Source: Acidobacteriota bacterium (GTDB taxonomy: Bacteria; Acidobacteriota; JAAYUB01). Taken from it: a stretch of DNA of 32,549 nucleotides. Of this stretch, positions 1-32,549 are shown one piece after another. Position 1 is the stretch's first letter. Each line of letters opens with the position of its first letter. Made by a program: the position numbers and the translations under genes. Under the pieces are notes generated by a model. That model did no database searches. It saw only the letters and a list, made by a program, of their open reading frames with translations, and was not told where the DNA came from. The stretch covers positions 1-32,549 of the forward strand of contig JAAYUB010000121.1 in the NCBI GenBank assembly GCA_012517875.1, read 5' to 3'.

Positions 1-2884
1 CATCGAACAGCACGCGGGGGAGCTTTTCGGGTTCCACGCCGTCCAGCCCGCCCATGACCTGTTCGCGCCACTGCTCCTGCAAGGCGCAACCGGTCTCCAT
101 CATGCAGTAATCCAACGCCTGGTCCAAGGGTGCCTGGACCAGCGACCAGGCGACGGCGGGATCGCCTTGGGTCTCCACGATGCCGTAGAGAGAGCCCAGG
201 CTGGCATGAGCCTGATTGAAGGGAGACTTGGCGCCGGTCTCCGCCGTCTGTCCCGGCGTGAAGTTTTCCGGGAAGTAGTCGGAGATCATATGGAAGCAGG
301 TTTCCCGTGAGATGACCGCGGGGGCGATATTCTGGAGCGCCTCGAGATAGCGCTTCCAGATTTTCACCTCGGTGGTGCGGCGATCGGCCAGGCGGGCCTG
401 CTCCGGATCGATGCTTTCCTCGAGCTTCTGGACGAGCTGCTTCTCCTCCTGCTTCAATCTGTCCACCAGGCCGCTGGTCGTTTTAGGTCGGGGCTGCTGC
501 TCGGCTGCCAGCTTTTGGATGGCCGCCAGCTCCACCACCGGCGCGACCCATGTCGGCGGCACCGGATCTTCCAGTTGGGTGAGCTCCTGGGCCATCCTCT
601 GGATCAATAAGAAGAAGGGATTCTGGTCGGTGGTCATGAGGGTGGCGAGACGCTCCCGGCCCTGGGGGGTGCGCATGCCGTCCCGGGCCGAAGCGAAGCC
701 GGCGGCGAATCGTGTCCAGCTGGTGTAGTACTCGGAACGATACCACTCCCAGAATTCCTTCTTCGATTCGGTGATCACCGCCGGATCCGCCAGAACGGTA
801 TCGATCTGTCGGATGAACGCGTCGATATTCCTTCGGCCGGCGGCCGTGAACGCGCCCGGGACGAACATCGTCAGGTCGTAGTCCTGCTCGGGCGTCGGCC
901 AGAAGTTGATCAGGTCCACGTCGGGCGAATCGGGGATCCAGCTCTTGACCAGCCAGTGGAGGTTGCTGCCCTTGTGCTGGAGCAGATGGAGGAGATGCTG
1001 TTGCAGCTCCTGCACCTTCTGCTCACGCTCGAGCTTGTCGGTGAACCAGTAGAGATAGGTGTAGTAGATGTCGCCGAATTTGGCGGCTATCGCCGGCGGC
1101 AGCGTGGGGTATTCCAGTTCCAGCAGATCCGTGGTCGCGCGGCGGAATTCGTTGACGGTCGGCGGCGGCTGGTCGGGGGATGGCGACTCGCTGCGTAGAT
1201 AGTCCCGGATGAGCGATATGCGGGTGACCACGTAGCCGACGTAATCGGCCATCTCCTCCTCGGGTGTTTGCGGCGTCACGGCGTCAATGCGCCGGGCGAG
1301 GGATTCGTCCAGCGGAACCAGGAATCCGCCCCGGAACAGCCGCACAAAGTGCGCCCGCACGCGCGTCTCCAGTTTCAGGCTCTGGTTCAAGCCGAACCGG
1401 GGTACCCACCAATCCCGGTTGGCGGTTTGCAGATCGATGAGCTCCAGCCGCATTCGGTCCAGCATCAGCAGGTTGGTGGTGGCATCCTCGGTCAGTGTCG
1501 GCGGTTCGTGGAACTCCTCTTGGAACTCGTTGATCGTCCGGATGTTGAGGTGGAACGCCAGGCTCAGCAATCCGCAGAGGAAGGCCCAGAGCAGGCCCCA
1601 GGCGGCGAAGCCGAGGGTGCGGGTGAGCCTCCGCCATCGGATGAGTTCCGGCAGGGGACGGTAGACGTATCGGTCGGCCGGAAGCACTTCTTTGAAAACG
1701 TCTTTGAGAAAGTAGCCGTCCTCGCGCGTTCCCGCGGGCCGGGCGGCCGCGTCCAGTCCCGTGCTCCGAAGAAAGTCGCTGACGGGCGGTTCGCCCTGTC
1801 GGGCGCTGCTGAAGCAGATGCCGCGCAGCAGCGGCGTCTCCTGGTATGGATTGTCGCCGAAGACCGCTCGCAGAAAGTGGTTCAAGCCGCCGGTGAGCCG
1901 GCTGAACTCAGTGGGGAATAAGAGCGCGCCGGGTTCCGCCTCGGGCGTCTGGTGCACGAGGATGAAGCGGAGCTGGCGCAACCGTCGCCCCACCACCGTC
2001 ATGGCCTGGTCCAGCACGTCTTTCCACCGGAGCGTCTGCTGCTCGTTGATGAATCCCATGGCCTGGGTCAGGCGGTCAGGCGGCAAGGGCCGGCAGAACG
2101 GCACCATCCCGTGCACGAGGTCCATCTTGGTTACCAAGATGTAGACGGGAAAGCGCGCGCCGACGACCCGCATGACCTGATCGATCCGTTGGCGGACGTC
2201 CTCCCCGTCGGCATGCAGTCGGGCGGCATCCTCGGCCAGCAGGCGGTCTGCGGCGATGGCCACCACGAGACCATTGAGCGGCTCTCGCCGGCGGTACTGG
2301 GCCAGCAGCGTCAGGAATTTTTCCCATTCCTCGCGATCGGGCCCCGGATCCACCGGAATGGTGTAGCGGCCGGCAGTGTCCAAGACGATGGCCTGATCGA
2401 AAAACCACCACTCGCAGTTGCGGGTCGCCGCCAGGCCGGCGGTGCGGACGGTGTCGGCCAGCGGCGTGCTCAAGGTCGCGTTCTTGATGGCCGAGGTCTT
2501 GCCGGCACCGGACTCGCCGATGACCAGAAACCAGGGGAGGACGTAGAGGGGATTGCCCCGCTTACGCAGCTTGGACGCGCGCAATCGCTCCACAGACTCC
2601 TGCCACTTGGTCTGCAGGTCCTGCAGCTGCTCTCGTTCGTGGAGCGGGGCGGCCTGGATGGCCGCCGTGTCTTGGGCGATCACCCGCCGGACGAACTCGC
2701 GCTCCCGCTTGCGCAGGAAATATTTCCGGATGTACAAGATCGCCACCCACACCCCGACCACGCCCAGGAAGATCGCGACGCCGAACCACCAGGGCCACTG
2801 CCGCCAGATCACCAGCAAGGCGATTGCCCCGACCAGGAGGGCCAGCAGGAAGACATACAGGAGGATCTTGAGAAACTTGCGCAC
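1..2884 (-). CDS. tssM: Type VI secretion inner-membrane protein TssM (IcmF family), 3' end outside window
   Basis: TssM is the large inner-membrane subunit of the T6SS membrane complex, working with TssL and lipoprotein TssJ. About 961 residues are visible before the frame runs off the left edge. The first 55 residues hold two hydrophobic segments. A Walker A motif GESGAGKT lies at about residues 123-130, followed by LDTAGRY, as in the cytoplasmic NTPase domain of IcmF proteins. A third membrane segment (about residues 425-445) is followed by the start of the long periplasmic part. The start is GTG at 2884, because no other start lies in frame between the tssL stop at 2916 and this point. 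It is the fourth gene of tssJKLM. Full-length family members usually exceed 1,100 residues, so the C-terminal part is missing here only because the window ends. The reading frame is intact across the window. Confidence 0.93.
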   Translation of the reverse strand, partial: MRKFLKILLYVFLLALLVGAIALLVIWRQWPWWFGVAIFLGVVGVWVAILYIRKYFLRKREREFVRRVIAQDTAAIQAAPLHEREQLQDLQTKWQESVERLRASKLRKRGNPLYVLPWFLVIGESGAGKTSAIKNATLSTPLADTVRTAGLAATRNCEWWFFDQAIVLDTAGRYTIPVDPGPDREEWEKFLTLLAQYRRREPLNGLVVAIAADRLLAEDAARLHADGEDVRQRIDQVMRVVGARFPVYILVTKMDLVHGMVPFCRPLPPDRLTQAMGFINEQQTLRWKDVLDQAMTVVGRRLRQLRFILVHQTPEAEPGALLFPTEFSRLTGGLNHFLRAVFGDNPYQETPLLRGICFSSARQGEPPVSDFLRSTGLDAAARPAGTREDGYFLKDVFKEVLPADRYVYRPLPELIRWRRLTRTLGFAAWGLLWAFLCGLLSLAFHLNIRTINEFQEEFHEPPTLTEDATTNLLMLDRMRLELIDLQTANRDWWVPRFGLNQSLKLETRVRAHFVRLFRGGFLVPLDESLARRIDAVTPQTPEEEMADYVGYVVTRISLIRDYLRSESPSPDQPPPTVNEFRRATTDLLELEYPTLPPAIAAKFGDIYYTYLYWFTDKLEREQKVQELQQHLLHLLQHKGSNLHWLVKSWIPDSPDVDLINFWPTPEQDYDLTMFVPGAFTAAGRRNIDAFIRQIDTVLADPAVITESKKEFWEWYRSEYYTSWTRFAAGFASARDGMRTPQGRERLATLMTTDQNPFFLLIQRMAQELTQLEDPVPPTWVAPVVELAAIQKLAAEQQPRPKTTSGLVDRLKQEEKQLVQKLEESIDPEQARLADRRTTEVKIWKRYLEALQNIAPAVISRETCFHMISDYFPENFTPGQTAETGAKSPFNQAHASLGSLYGIVETQGDPAVAWSLVQAPLDQALDYCMMETGCALQEQWREQVMGGLDGVEPEKLPRVLFD

Positions 2885-2915
2885 GGCTTCACTTGTCCGT
2901 CGAGATACGTATCGG

Positions 2916-3653
2916 CTAAAACACGCTGCTGAAATAATTGAAAATCAGGTTGTTCAGCAGTTTGTCATACAGGATGTACAGGGCGATGAAGATGACCACC
3001 GGCGCCGCGCACAGCAGTGTGTAGCATGCTAACGCCAGAGGGAAACGGCCCTTTTTCCGCTTGGGCGGGGAGACCGGCTGCGCCTCGGGAAAGAGCTGGT
3101 CGGGCAGCGGCAGATCCTTAGTGTCCGCCACCAGGTGGAGGTTCTCGCGACGGATGTCCGCCAGTCGGGTTTGATCGGCGGGCAGAAAATAGCGTCCCTT
3201 GAAACCGAGCGCCAGGCAGTAGTCGTAGACCTCGCGCACGTCCCGCGCATCGGGCGGCAACCGGTCCAGTTGGTCGAAAAAGCCTTCGCCCGCCAAGGTG
3301 GTCTGGAACAGGGCGCGTTGCAGCTGGGCCAACTGCCACTTGTCCCGGTCGGGCCAATCGGAACAGAGCACGATTTCATCCACCCAGGCGCAGACCGCGT
3401 AAAGTCCGGCCTGCCAAGGCGCGTCCGGCACACCCGCGGCCTGACGGGACTGCTCCGCGCGGTCTATCAATCGGCGGAACTGGCGGTCCAGTTCGGCCTG
3501 CGTGGTCGGCCGCGTTTCCGGATACCGAGCGAAGTAGAGCGTGTAGGCAAACAACTCGAGGAAATGCTCCACCAAACCGGCTTCAGCCGGGGCGGCCACC
3601 GGCGAAAGGGGTAAATCGGTCGTGAGATTCAACCTGTTGATGGTCTGCTTCAT
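2916..3653 (-). CDS. tssL: Type VI secretion protein TssL (DotU family), short form
   Basis: TssL is the tail-anchored inner-membrane protein that pairs with TssM and contacts the TssK baseplate subunit. The 245-residue protein has the DotU pattern: an N-terminal helical cytoplasmic domain with the typical ALYAVCAWVDEIVL-like segment at about residues 85-98, then GEGFFDQLDRL and a CLALGFKGRY segment. One transmembrane helix (about 205-230) lies near the C-terminus. There is no OmpA-like peptidoglycan-binding extension, so this is the short TssL type; peptidoglycan anchoring, if present, must come from another protein. It lies 4 bases after tssK and 31 bases before tssM, which supports co-transcription. 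Confidence 0.93.
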   Translation of the reverse strand: MKQTINRLNLTTDLPLSPVAAPAEAGLVEHFLELFAYTLYFARYPETRPTTQAELDRQFRRLIDRAEQSRQAAGVPDAPWQAGLYAVCAWVDEIVLCSDWPDRDKWQLAQLQRALFQTTLAGEGFFDQLDRLPPDARDVREVYDYCLALGFKGRYFLPADQTRLADIRRENLHLVADTKDLPLPDQLFPEAQPVSPPKRKKGRFPLALACYTLLCAAPVVIFIALYILYDKLLNNLIFNYFSSVF

Positions 3654-3657
3654 ACAC

Positions 3658-5046
3658 CTACTTGCGCACGATAATCAGCTCCGCCTTGGTGTCAGCGGGC
3701 GCATTGTCCCAATACAAGCAGAAATTCTGCCGTTTCATGATCTCCAGCCAGTGACCGTGGGCCTGGTCCAGCCTGAAGTAAAGTGAACCCGGACGCTTGG
3801 GCAAACCCGGAGGCGGCACTTCGTTGTACTGCATCGGCAGGCCGGGCAGCGCCCGGGCCAGCAGCGTGGGCAGCATCTCGATGCTGCCGGATTTGGCCAG
3901 GTTGCGCAGCGCGTCGAGTGACCGCTGCCGGTCCTCGGCGGTCCGCACCACCAGGTAGAACACGTTCCGGCTGTCGAACAGGGTGGCGGGGATGACGCCG
4001 CGGAACCACTCGCCCTCACGGACCAGATCGATGATGCCCTCCGGCCCCACCAGAATGGCGTTGAGCAGCTCCTCGATCAGCGTTTGCGCCTCCTCGAAGC
4101 AGGGGCCGGGGTTTTCGTGGTCGTAATCCGGAAGGAGGGGTCGGCCGTCGGGGAGCCGGCCCAGGGCGTTCACCCGGTCGGAGAACGTGCTCAGCTCGCC
4201 CACCAGCTGCCGGAGCAGTCCGTAGAACGCCCACGGATGCACGACGGGCGTCTCCGTGAGATGATGGAGCGGCGGCAGATACCGGTTCAGGGAGCGGAGC
4301 GCGAGCAGGAACACCGTGTAACCGCTTTCAAATTCGGCCGTCTGGACATCCCGCGGCACCTTGTACTCCTCCAGGCTCCGTGTGCGCGACGCCACCAGTT
4401 CCCGGATGTTTTTGGCGATCTGCAGCAGCACTGGCGAGGCGCTGAGCACCACCGAGGGCGGCGCGAAGCGCTCCGACAGGTGCACACCGCTCCGGTCGCT
4501 CTCCAGCTCCGCCACGGGCAGAAGATGGTAGTCACCGACGCTGGGGATCTCCGATTCCCAGAACACCTTGAGTGTATACTGCATCAGCCGCACGTGTGCT
4601 GTGGGGCCGCTGTGATGCATGTCTTTGATCTCTTGGGGGACGATGTGGCAGGCGAGGCGGGTGTTGACTTTGCCGACATCCCCTTCCTGCTCGAGCACCG
4701 TGACGTTTTCCTCGGATGATTCCCACTTGTGCAACCCCAAGTAAACCTTGAACGGCCGTTCGGTATCAGTCCAGGCCGTCTTGAATGAGCGCGCCTGGAG
4801 AACGCCGTTGCCCGGCAACGTCACCCAGGTACCGTCCTGAAAAATGAACGATCCTTCGCTGAGATCGAACGTCTGGTTCAGCAGCAGGGGCTCGTCCACG
4901 CGCCATGAGGCGGCGCCCCAGGTGTACGGTTGGACAAATTGCCGAAACGGATCCAGGAGGGAATGGAAATAGCGTTCCTGCAACTGGAAATGGTGCGGCT
5001 GAAGAAAGAGTCCCTGATGCCAGAAAATGGGTTTGCTCGCTTGCAT
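3658..5046 (-). CDS. tssK: Type VI secretion baseplate protein TssK
   Basis: TssK links the T6SS baseplate to the TssJLM membrane complex. The N-terminal signature FWHQGLFLQPHHFQ is diagnostic of the TssK/ImpJ/VasE family, and the length (462 residues from this start) is normal. The upstream ATG at 5067 would add seven residues and overlap tssJ by 17 bases. I prefer the ATG at 5046, which follows the tssJ stop by four bases and has GGAG about seven bases ahead. The reading frame is intact. No membrane segment is evident, as expected for a cytoplasmic baseplate protein. Confidence 0.92.
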   Translation of the reverse strand: MQASKPIFWHQGLFLQPHHFQLQERYFHSLLDPFRQFVQPYTWGAASWRVDEPLLLNQTFDLSEGSFIFQDGTWVTLPGNGVLQARSFKTAWTDTERPFKVYLGLHKWESSEENVTVLEQEGDVGKVNTRLACHIVPQEIKDMHHSGPTAHVRLMQYTLKVFWESEIPSVGDYHLLPVAELESDRSGVHLSERFAPPSVVLSASPVLLQIAKNIRELVASRTRSLEEYKVPRDVQTAEFESGYTVFLLALRSLNRYLPPLHHLTETPVVHPWAFYGLLRQLVGELSTFSDRVNALGRLPDGRPLLPDYDHENPGPCFEEAQTLIEELLNAILVGPEGIIDLVREGEWFRGVIPATLFDSRNVFYLVVRTAEDRQRSLDALRNLAKSGSIEMLPTLLARALPGLPMQYNEVPPPGLPKRPGSLYFRLDQAHGHWLEIMKRQNFCLYWDNAPADTKAELIIVRK

Positions 5047-5050
5047 GGGC

Positions 5051-5620
5051 TCACTCCAACTCGTCATATGGGTCGATTTCCTGCGGTGCCCGCGGACCCA
5101 AAAACAGGTGCACGCTGAGATGGTCCACCCGCGCCGAGGTCTTCTTGAAAATCTTCCCGTGGTGTTCGATCAGGACCGGGATGTTCAGCAATCGGGTGAC
5201 CACGCCGGGGGTCAGCTGGTAATATCCCGCCACCACGCCCACCCATTGGGCGCTCTTCGCCCGAGCCAGGGTGAGGGTATTCCGCTCGCCGGGTTGAACG
5301 AAGAACCGGTTTGCCGCTGCGACGGTCGCGTCATAGGGCTGGGCCTGCAGCAGTTTCTGCAGGCCTTCGGCAGACTGGGCCAAGTTGTTGAAACTGTTGA
5401 TATCCGTAAGTTGATAAATCGCCAGCACGGTGGCGTGGGCGCTGCCGTCGTACGCGTTGAGCAGCGGGTCGGCGATGTAGGTGATCTGAATGGCTCTGGG
5501 TTCAAACCGCCAGTCGGGCGCCGGTGGCGGCGTGACATTTTTTTTGCACGCGCAGACGCACACCGCCAACAGCAGACCCAGTCCGACGAGTCTTTGGTGG
5601 ACAACGACGCGAGCGATCAC
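5051..5620 (-). CDS. tssJ: Type VI secretion outer-membrane lipoprotein TssJ
   Basis: TssJ is the outer-membrane lipoprotein of the T6SS trans-envelope complex and binds the periplasmic domain of TssM. The 189-residue product begins with a hydrophobic signal (residues 5-24) ending in a cysteine-rich stretch. C25, preceded by alanine, is the best lipidation site and is followed by two lysines. The rest reads as a soluble beta-rich domain with YIADPLLNAY and PVLIEHHGKIFKK segments, in keeping with SciN/VasD proteins. Start is GTG at 5620 with AAGGAT about seven bases upstream. It is the first gene of tssJKLM and has its own promoter. The family call rests on size, lipobox and position as much as on sequence. 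Confidence 0.87.
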   Translation of the reverse strand: MIARVVVHQRLVGLGLLLAVCVCACKKNVTPPPAPDWRFEPRAIQITYIADPLLNAYDGSAHATVLAIYQLTDINSFNNLAQSAEGLQKLLQAQPYDATVAAANRFFVQPGERNTLTLARAKSAQWVGVVAGYYQLTPGVVTRLLNIPVLIEHHGKIFKKTSARVDHLSVHLFLGPRAPQEIDPYDELE

Positions 5621-30608: not shown

Positions 30609-31643
30609 TTACGGCCGGATGACAATGGCGCCGCCGGCGGTGATCTCGCCGACGCGTCGGCTCCACGGATAATCGGGAAGCAGCTCCGTGAGCAGCGGCG
30701 CAGCACTCGCGGGCGCGACCGCCAGGAGCAGCCCGCCCGACGTCTGGGCGTCGTACAGCACGTTGACCACGCCCTCGTCCACGGGACCGTCTACCGTCAC
30801 GTGCGGCTGCAGGTATTCCATGTTGGCCACGCTGCCGCCGGGCATCTTCCACGCCCGCGCCAGCTCCAGTGCGGCGGGAAAGGCGGGCACGGCGTCCGCC
30901 GCGATCACCGCGCCCGTCCCGCTGGCTGCGCACATTTCCCACAAGTGGCCCAGAAAGCCGAACCCGGTGATGTCCGTGACGGCGTGGCACTCGTGCCGCA
31001 GCATGATCCGGGCCGCGGCGGCGTTGAGCTGCTCCATGGCGGCGACGGCCGGGGCGAGATCCGCTTCGGACAGGTCGTCGTTTTTGAGGGCGGTGGTCAG
31101 GACGCCGATACCCAGCGGTTTGGTCAGGATCAGGATGTCGCCGGGCCGGGCGCCGCGGTTGAGCCGGAGGTCGGCCCGCTGGACCACGCCAGTCACCGCC
31201 AATCCGTACTTCGGCTCGGGGTCGTCGATGGTGTGACCACCGGCGATGGCGATGCCGGCCTCGGCCGCCTTCTCGGCGCCGCCGCGGAAGATCTCGCCCA
31301 GCAATGCCATGCCCAGTTTTTTAGGAAATGCGGCGACGTTGAGCGCGGTCACGGGGGTCGCACCCATGGCATAGACGTCCGACAGTGCGTTTGCTACCGC
31401 GATCTTGCCAAACAAGTAGGGATCATCCACTACCGGTGTGAAGAAATCGACGGTGGATACCAGCAGGAGCCCGTCGGCAATTTCGTACACCGCGGCGTCG
31501 TCGGACGTCTCGTATCCCACCAGCAGGCGGGGGTCATGAAAGGTCGGCATACCGGCCAGCGCCAAGCCCAGCTCCGCCGGGCTCATTTTGGACGCTCAAC
31601 CGGCGCAGCGGACCAGCTGGGTCAGGCGGACACGTTCGTTCAC
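30609..31643 (-). CDS. selD: Selenide, water dikinase SelD with in-frame UGA (selenocysteine)
   Basis: SelD makes selenophosphate from selenide and ATP for selenocysteine and selenouridine synthesis. Conventional calling would start at ATG 31586 (MSPAELGLAL), cutting off the catalytic site. Upstream in frame, from GTG 31643, the product reads RLTQLVRCAG, then UGA (31596-31598), then ASKMSPAEL. The UGA aligns with the catalytic Cys17 of E. coli SelD, and the lysine three residues later aligns with Lys20. The full length, 344 residues, fits the family. Later motifs include STVDFFTPVVDDPYLFGKIA, ALSDVYAMGA, GGHTIDDPEPKYGL and DITGFGFLGHL. GGAGG lies about ten bases before GTG. It sits 18 bases after the TPR gene and 44 bases before the GH127 gene. 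Confidence 0.95.
31559..31595 (-). promoter_or_regulatory. Putative bacterial SECIS hairpin in selD
   Basis: Directly after the UGA the minus-strand RNA can fold as GCG, a bulged U, CCA, an internal bulge, AGCCC, a nine-base loop GGCGGAGCU, then GGGCU, UGG, CGC. The apical loop begins about 18 bases after the UGA and starts with GG, which fits published bacterial SECIS rules (loop 16-37 nt downstream, G in the first two loop positions). A bulged U is also present, as in the fdhF element. Confidence 0.6.
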
Positions 31644-31661
31644 TCGGGTTGTGCCTCCGGT

Positions 31662-32396
31662 TCAAGGTTGGGTCATCAGCGCCTGGATGCGCGAGTCCGG
31701 GAGGAAGGGCGCGAAGTCCGGATCCTCCCTGAGTTCCTTGAAGTCTTTGAAGCCGCTGTCCACGGCCAGCTTCAGGAAGTGGACCACCTTCTCCAGGTCG
31801 TTGACCTGCGCGTACAGTTTGGCGTAATAGAAATTCCGCTTGGCGGCATCGATGTCCAGCGAGCCGATCTCCAGGCCGCCGCGGTCCTTCATCAGGTATT
31901 CTGGATCGATCTGGACCAGCTTGTGCATCGTGTCCACCGCCTGAAGATATTTCTTCTGCGCAAAGTACGCGTTGGCCAGGTTGAAGTAGGCGAGCAGGAA
32001 CTGCGGATCCTTCTCGACGGCTTTCTTGTACTGCTTGATCGCGGACTTATACTGTTTGCGGACGTGGTAGATGGCCGCCAGGTTGTTGTAGGCCCGGGCG
32101 TAATTCTTGTCCATGCGGATGGAGCGTTTGAAGTAGGAACGGGCGGCGTCGAAATTCCCCGTTTGCAAAAAAACGACGCCCAAAAAATTGGGGATCTCGG
32201 GATTCTTGGGATCCTCCTGCATGGCCTTGAGAAGGGCGTTGACAGCCTGGTCGTACTGCTTGAGGGCGATTTTGACCTTGGCCTTCTCCAGCTGCGGCGC
32301 CTGTTCGGCGGCTTCCGGCGCCTGCGCGGCCAGGCTGCCGGTGGCGACAAGAAGTGTCACGACGAGGGCCAGGACACGAACTCCGTTTCTGGACAT
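31662..32396 (-). CDS. Exported TPR-repeat protein
   Basis: The 244-residue protein has a signal peptide (residues 1-24, cleaved near SLAAQ) and at least four tetratricopeptide repeats between about residues 33 and 175: LKQYDQAVNALLKAMQEDP, TGNFDAARSYFKRSIRMD, ARAYNNLAAIYHVRKQYKSA and LAYFNLANAYFAQKKYLQA. A final helical segment carries ...LKLAVDSGFKDFKELREDPDF, as in TPR-end regions. It probably acts as a periplasmic protein-protein scaffold; the partner is unknown. ATG 32396 has GGGAGG about seven bases upstream. It is the first gene of the unit that includes selD and GH127. Confidence 0.87.
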   Translation of the reverse strand: MSRNGVRVLALVVTLLVATGSLAAQAPEAAEQAPQLEKAKVKIALKQYDQAVNALLKAMQEDPKNPEIPNFLGVVFLQTGNFDAARSYFKRSIRMDKNYARAYNNLAAIYHVRKQYKSAIKQYKKAVEKDPQFLLAYFNLANAYFAQKKYLQAVDTMHKLVQIDPEYLMKDRGGLEIGSLDIDAAKRNFYYAKLYAQVNDLEKVVHFLKLAVDSGFKDFKELREDPDFAPFLPDSRIQALMTQP

Positions 32397-32426
32397 GGCG
32401 AACCTCCCGATATGGGAATTGTTCCT

Positions 32427-32454
32427 ATTATACGACGGGGGTCGGCAATGTTCA
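32427..32454 (-). promoter_or_regulatory. Sigma70-type promoter for the TPR-selD-GH127 unit
   Basis: On the minus strand TGAACA (32449-32454, four of six) and a perfect TATAAT (32427-32432) are 16 bases apart. The predicted start near 32419 gives a short leader that contains the GGGAGG ribosome-binding site. Confidence 0.6.
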
Positions 32455-32466
32455 CCTGAAAGCGAC

Positions 32467-32484
32467 GCCGCCGGATCCGGCGGC
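32467..32484. repeat. Perfect 18-base palindrome near the right edge
   Basis: GCCGCCGGATCCGGCGGC is self-complementary and lies about 13 bases upstream of the -35 box of the TPR promoter. It may be an operator or the 3' hairpin of a gene beyond the window; no T-run follows on either side. Confidence 0.3.
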
Positions 32485-32549
32485 ATGAACACGGCGCTCG
32501 GGAATCTGCATCTATACCGGGCGCGTGGCGCGGGCGGCCGACACGGTCC

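What the first reader, a model, noticed from the sequence alone, without database searches (positions are those of the whole stretch)
31559..31643. SelD is a selenoprotein: UGA at the catalytic position, usually lost by automatic start calling
The conventional ORF begins at MSPAELGLAL, after the active site. Reading TGA at 31596-31598 as selenocysteine restores RLTQLVRCAG-U-ASK, in which U aligns with the catalytic Cys17 and K with Lys20 of E. coli SelD. A hairpin directly downstream fits bacterial SECIS rules. Selenocysteine-containing SelD is a known phenomenon. Its presence here predicts selA, selB and selC elsewhere in the genome and other hidden selenoproteins.
Basis: partly seen in the sequence, partly recalled or inferred. 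Interest (0 to 1): 0.72.

Follow-up and report, generated by a model that had tools for sequence, protein, structure and literature searches.

The report
Ordinary selenocysteine-containing SelD gene

Summary
Confirmed, and ordinary. The selD gene is on the minus strand. A table-11 reading starts at MSPAEL (31586), after the active site. Reading TGA 31598-31596 as Sec joins it in frame to VNERVRLTQLVRCAG-U-ASK, with a GTG start (31643) and a GGAGG Shine-Dalgarno 10 nt upstream; Sec aligns with Cys17 and Lys with Lys20 of E. coli SelD. The codon is TGA in 94 of 110 relatives and TGT/TGC in the other 16. A 10-bp hairpin with a GGA loop 20 nt after UGA meets the published bacterial SECIS rules, is stronger than synonymous recodings (p about 0.017) and shows three compensatory pairs across the order; Cys-type genes lack such hairpins as a class. 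The same genome holds selA, selB (split over two contig ends), tRNA-Sec and a Sec formate dehydrogenase, but no SelU; sister species add a Sec peroxiredoxin. Sec-SelD has been published since at least 2006, so this is a new member of a known kind. Mildly interesting side finding: the active-site neighbour cysteine is at -3 (CxxU, as here) or +2 (UxC), never both, and has switched several times; CxxU SelD itself was reported in 2008.

The parts
30609..31643 (-). selD coding sequence, GTG start to stop, 344 residues with one Sec
   Evidence: TIGR00476 selD equivalog 378.6 bits against a cut-off of 125
31596..31598 (-). in-frame TGA read as selenocysteine, at the position of Cys17 of E. coli SelD
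   Evidence: TGA in 94 of 110 relatives, TGT/TGC in 16
31587..31643 (-). N-terminal segment VNERVRLTQLVRCAGUASK that a table-11 ORF call leaves out
   Evidence: protein-level conservation upstream of the TGA
31654..31658 (-). GGAGG, Shine-Dalgarno-like, 10 nt before the GTG start; GGAGG is kept in both same-genus genomes
   Evidence: sequence
31563..31585 (-). bacterial SECIS hairpin, 10 bp, apical loop GGA (31575-31573) beginning 20 nt after the UGA
   Evidence: covariation in six genomes of the same order
31662..32492 (-). preceding gene, TPR-repeat protein, ending 18 nt before the selD start

Best explanation
The gene encodes selenide, water dikinase (SelD), which makes selenophosphate from selenide and ATP. 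Its catalytic residue is selenocysteine. Translation starts at GTG 31643. At UGA 31598-31596, SelB bound to the hairpin just downstream delivers Sec-tRNA-Sec, and the ribosome continues to 30609. SelD thus makes the selenium donor that SelA uses to charge the tRNA needed for SelD itself and for other selenoproteins, including formate dehydrogenase. Shown here: the reading frame, conservation of the TGA, the hairpin with covariation, and the sel genes in the genome. Inferred from established knowledge of the E. coli system: actual Sec insertion and the enzyme activity.
For: The only TGA lies at the catalytic codon, and the reading frame upstream is conserved as protein. Among 110 SelD loci the codon is TGA in 94 and TGT/TGC in 16, never TAA, TAG or another sense codon. 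Hairpins meeting the SECIS rules are much stronger than synonymous recodings in TGA genes (mean z -2.15, n=94) but not in Cys genes (mean z -0.29, n=16; Mann-Whitney p=4e-7). In the six same-order genomes, taken without choosing for a hairpin, the helix has three pairs with changes on both sides; 0 of 500 shuffles reach the covariation score. Genome: tRNA-Sec, SelA, SelB, FdhA with Sec at CARLUH and a GGUCU-loop hairpin 18 nt on. Across 60 related genomes, a strong tRNA-Sec goes with a strong SelD (39 of 45 with SelD, 1 of 15 without; Fisher p=3e-8, not corrected for kinship).
Against: No direct proof of Sec insertion. Rfam has no family that matches this hairpin; SECIS elements differ widely between genes, so this says little. 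The window hairpin alone is only moderately unusual: p about 0.017 against synonymous recodings, and z -1.30 against dinucleotide shuffles. The FdhA hairpin of the own genome is not significant on its own against recodings (p 0.14). SelB lies on two contig ends, so its integrity is inferred.
Confidence: 0.97

Rival explanations
1. The protein starts at MSPAEL (ATG 31586) and the upstream reading frame is a coincidence; SelD lacks the catalytic Cys/Sec.
For: It is the longest plain ORF under table 11.
Against: No Shine-Dalgarno precedes ATG 31586, whereas GGAGG precedes GTG 31643. The upstream segment is conserved as protein far beyond the phylum, with synonymous changes. It would remove the catalytic residue.
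Confidence: 0.01
2. The TGA is a sequencing or assembly error for TGC/TGT, or a recent nonsense mutation in a decaying gene.
For: One base separates TGA from TGC/TGT, and the contigs come from a draft assembly.
Against: Independent assemblies of two sister species and most of the phylum have the same TGA. The rest of the gene is intact, and the SECIS hairpin covaries.
Confidence: 0.005
3. UGA is read through by something other than the Sec machinery (suppressor tRNA or near-cognate readthrough), giving a different residue.
For: None found.
Against: The Sec machinery is present. The alternative codon in relatives is always Cys, and a SECIS hairpin is present.
Confidence: 0.01

Closest known systems
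Sec-containing SelD / SPS2 of bacteria (TIGR00476; PMC1794560, PMC4561486)
   Same: Same family, Sec at the same codon, in-gene bacterial SECIS, with SelA, SelB and tRNA-Sec in the genome.
   Different: Nothing of kind. The SECIS loop is 20 nt after UGA here and in the same order; 33 nt is commonest in the loci compared.
CxxU-type single-domain SelD (noted in PMC2398784, about 5.6% of marine Sec-SelDs)
   Same: Active site CAGU: Cys three residues before Sec, no Cys at +2.
   Different: Here in an Acidobacteriota genome; in this sample 27 of 93 non-redundant TGA loci, from several phyla, are of this type.
E. coli SelD (PDB 3u0o)
   Same: Sequence family, Cys17/Lys20 positions, AIRS domains.
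   Different: E. coli has Cys at the catalytic codon and Cys19 at +2; the window has Sec, with Ser at +2.

Membership tests
SelD (selenide, water dikinase) | TIGR00476 equivalog model above its curated cut-off | tested here: met
   378.6 bits against 125
SelD (selenide, water dikinase) | catalytic Cys/Sec and Lys (E. coli Cys17, Lys20) | tested here: met
   alignment; U22 and K25 of the frame
SelD (selenide, water dikinase) | selenophosphate synthesis activity | not testable with these tools
   needs an enzyme assay
Bacterial selenoprotein gene | in-frame UGA aligned with Cys in homologues | tested here: met
   94 TGA, 16 TGT/TGC, no other codon
Bacterial selenoprotein gene | SECIS: 3-9 nt loop with G in its first two positions, 4-16 bp stem, 16-37 nt from UGA to loop | tested here: met
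   loop GGA, 10 bp, 20 nt; rules quoted from PMC13188914; covariation
Bacterial selenoprotein gene | selA, selB and tRNA-Sec in the genome | tested here: met
Bacterial selenoprotein gene | Sec detected in the protein | not testable with these tools
   needs mass spectrometry or 75Se labelling

The most novel reading that the evidence does not exclude
In SelD the catalytic Sec works with one neighbouring thiol that may sit on either side (CxxU or UxC). The side has switched repeatedly in evolution, so the neighbour Cys (dispensable in E. coli, as I recall) would have a real but position-flexible redox or resolving role. In the 93 non-redundant TGA loci compared, 27 have Cys at -3 only, 57 at +2 only, 9 neither and none both; a quick tree needs about 9 changes of the -3 state, at least 3 of them forced by well-supported branches.
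Probability: 0.3. Interest if true: 0.35.

Novelty: new member of a known kind. Interest (0 to 1): 0.15.

Why it matters
It matters mainly for annotation. The active site of SelD, and a Sec formate dehydrogenase in the same genome, would be missed or split by a caller that stops at UGA. It adds this Acidobacteriota order to the selenoprotein users and suggests that selenophosphate there serves Sec rather than selenouridine, as no SelU was found. The CxxU/UxC exclusivity makes an old question, what the second active-site thiol of SelD does, testable by mutating pairs.

Tried and rejected
Rfam at gathering and relaxed thresholds found no SECIS or other credible RNA family in the region. Own-genome tRNA-Sec matches of about 50 bits and below are not tRNA-Sec; the two checked are tRNA-Ser and tRNA-Trp. 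The own-genome AhpC-TSA protein at C134 is a Cys type, not a selenoprotein. The molybdopterin-type hit at C77 has its TGA in a trailing read-through with no selenoprotein motif and was set aside. The Fe-S CCG (HdrB/GlpC) and AhpD-like families show no TGA in this order. The idea that SelD might be the sole selenoprotein was rejected because of FdhA.

Full report
The window is one contig (C121) of a 4.02 Mb, 182-contig genome, 95.9% complete. A same-genus genome whose selD contig has the same length in both collections (82,471 bases) is named Acidobacteriota bacterium USMO_maxbin.051, so the organism is an uncultured Acidobacteriota.

Observation. The selD gene is on the minus strand. The table-11 ORF is 30609..31586 and begins MSPAELGLAL. 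With TGA 31598-31596 read as U, the frame is open upstream and contains VNERVRLTQLVRCAGUASKMSPAEL. GTG 31643-31641 is preceded by GGAGG at 31658-31654, 10 nt away; no such element precedes ATG 31586. The preceding TPR gene ends 18 nt before the GTG. In the same-genus genomes the protein sequence from the GTG to the Sec is identical and the DNA differs before it. Between more distant relatives, 3 to 5 of the 6 to 8 shared residues just before the TGA are written with different synonymous codons, which is the mark of coding sequence.

Identity. The translated protein scores 378.6 bits against TIGR00476 SelD, cut-off 125. Aligned to E. coli SelD (PDB 3u0o), U falls on Cys17 and K on Lys20.

Conservation of the UGA. 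In 60 genomes of the phylum most full-length SelD matches contain exactly one TGA. Over 110 loci (30 from this search, 80 from genome contigs; one pair is the same genome), the codon is TGA in 94 and TGT or TGC in 16, with no other codon.

SECIS. The hairpin TGAGCCCGGC-GGA-GCTGGGCTTG has 10 pairs and a GGA loop starting 20 nt after UGA. The published bacterial rules are a 3-9 nt loop with a G in its first two positions, a 4-16 bp upper stem and 16-37 nt spacing (PMC13188914). Against 300 recodings that keep the protein and the gene's own codon usage, the window hairpin is reached in 1.7% of cases. Over all TGA genes the mean z is -2.15, over the Cys genes -0.29 (p=4e-7, loci treated as independent). 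In the six genomes of the same order, chosen by kinship and not by hairpin, 3 of 10 pairs change on both sides while still pairing, 91.7% of cells pair, no shuffle of 500 reaches the covariation score, and sliding the partner destroys the pattern. In most other TGA genes the best hairpin is at +33.

Machinery. tRNA-Sec: C85:63292-63385, 79.3 bits, ARAGORN tRNA-SeC with TCA anticodon. SelA: C92:88334-89701, 474.5 bits. SelB: N-terminal half at the end of C40, 320 bits, over its cut-off, C-terminal half as an open frame at the end of C170. No SelU. FdhA: C92:62681-64687, 832 bits with one TGA, at VDHCARLUHSS, with a GGUCU-loop hairpin 18 nt on that is not significant on its own in this genome (p 0.14) but is in a sister species (p 0.02). 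Same-genus genomes add a Sec peroxiredoxin, DFTFVUPTE, with a strong hairpin. So selenium in this lineage goes into proteins, and selD is not the only selenoprotein gene.

Relation to the known. [quoted passage not shown] The present gene meets every defining feature that could be tested. It is a new member of a known kind.

Side finding. The motif around Sec has Cys at -3 or at +2, not both: 27 and 57 of 93 non-redundant TGA loci, with 9 having neither. On a quick tree built without the motif the -3 state needs about 9 changes, of which well-supported branches force at least 3. Kinship inflates any simple test of exclusivity, so the Fisher value is not used as a probability. CxxU SelD was already noted in marine metagenomes at about 5.6% (PMC2398784); the passages I read do not discuss exclusivity.

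Loose end. Six genomes with TGA-type SelD and SelB showed no tRNA-Sec. At most 150 candidates per genome are scored and these are multi-contig drafts, so this is probably a search or assembly gap.

Noticed in passing
window 31596-31607; loci L017-L128: SelD active-site motif is either CxxU or UxC, never both, and has switched several times. CxxU SelD is known (PMC2398784); exclusivity was not mentioned in the passages read.
   Followed up: partly
window 31563-31585 against other SelD loci: The SECIS hairpin sits 20 nt after UGA in this order but 33 nt after it in most other Sec-SelD genes: the element has moved within the same gene.
   Followed up: partly
L141 (G001), L140 (G002), L144 (G003): Sec peroxiredoxin DFTFVU(P/A)TE with a GGUC-loop hairpin in sister genomes; not found in the window's own assembly.
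   Followed up: partly
L148, complement of C92:62681-64687: Sec formate dehydrogenase FdhA on the same contig as selA.
   Followed up: partly
L009 (C40) and L147 (C170): selB is split across two contig ends; by inspection the gene just upstream of selB looks like a radical SAM protein of the AmmeMemoRadiSam type.
   Followed up: no
G002, G003, G010, G017, G026, G030: TGA-type SelD and SelB but no tRNA-Sec found; probably search or assembly gaps.
   Followed up: partly
G003:C60, G018:C13, G028, G052 and others: SelD matches without stop in frames of about 750 aa, probably the known Ndh-SelD fusions, some beside a Sec-SelD in the same genome.
   Followed up: no
window 2-5620, minus strand: Type VI secretion genes: IcmF/TssM, DotU/TssL, VasE/TssK and TssJ.
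   Followed up: no
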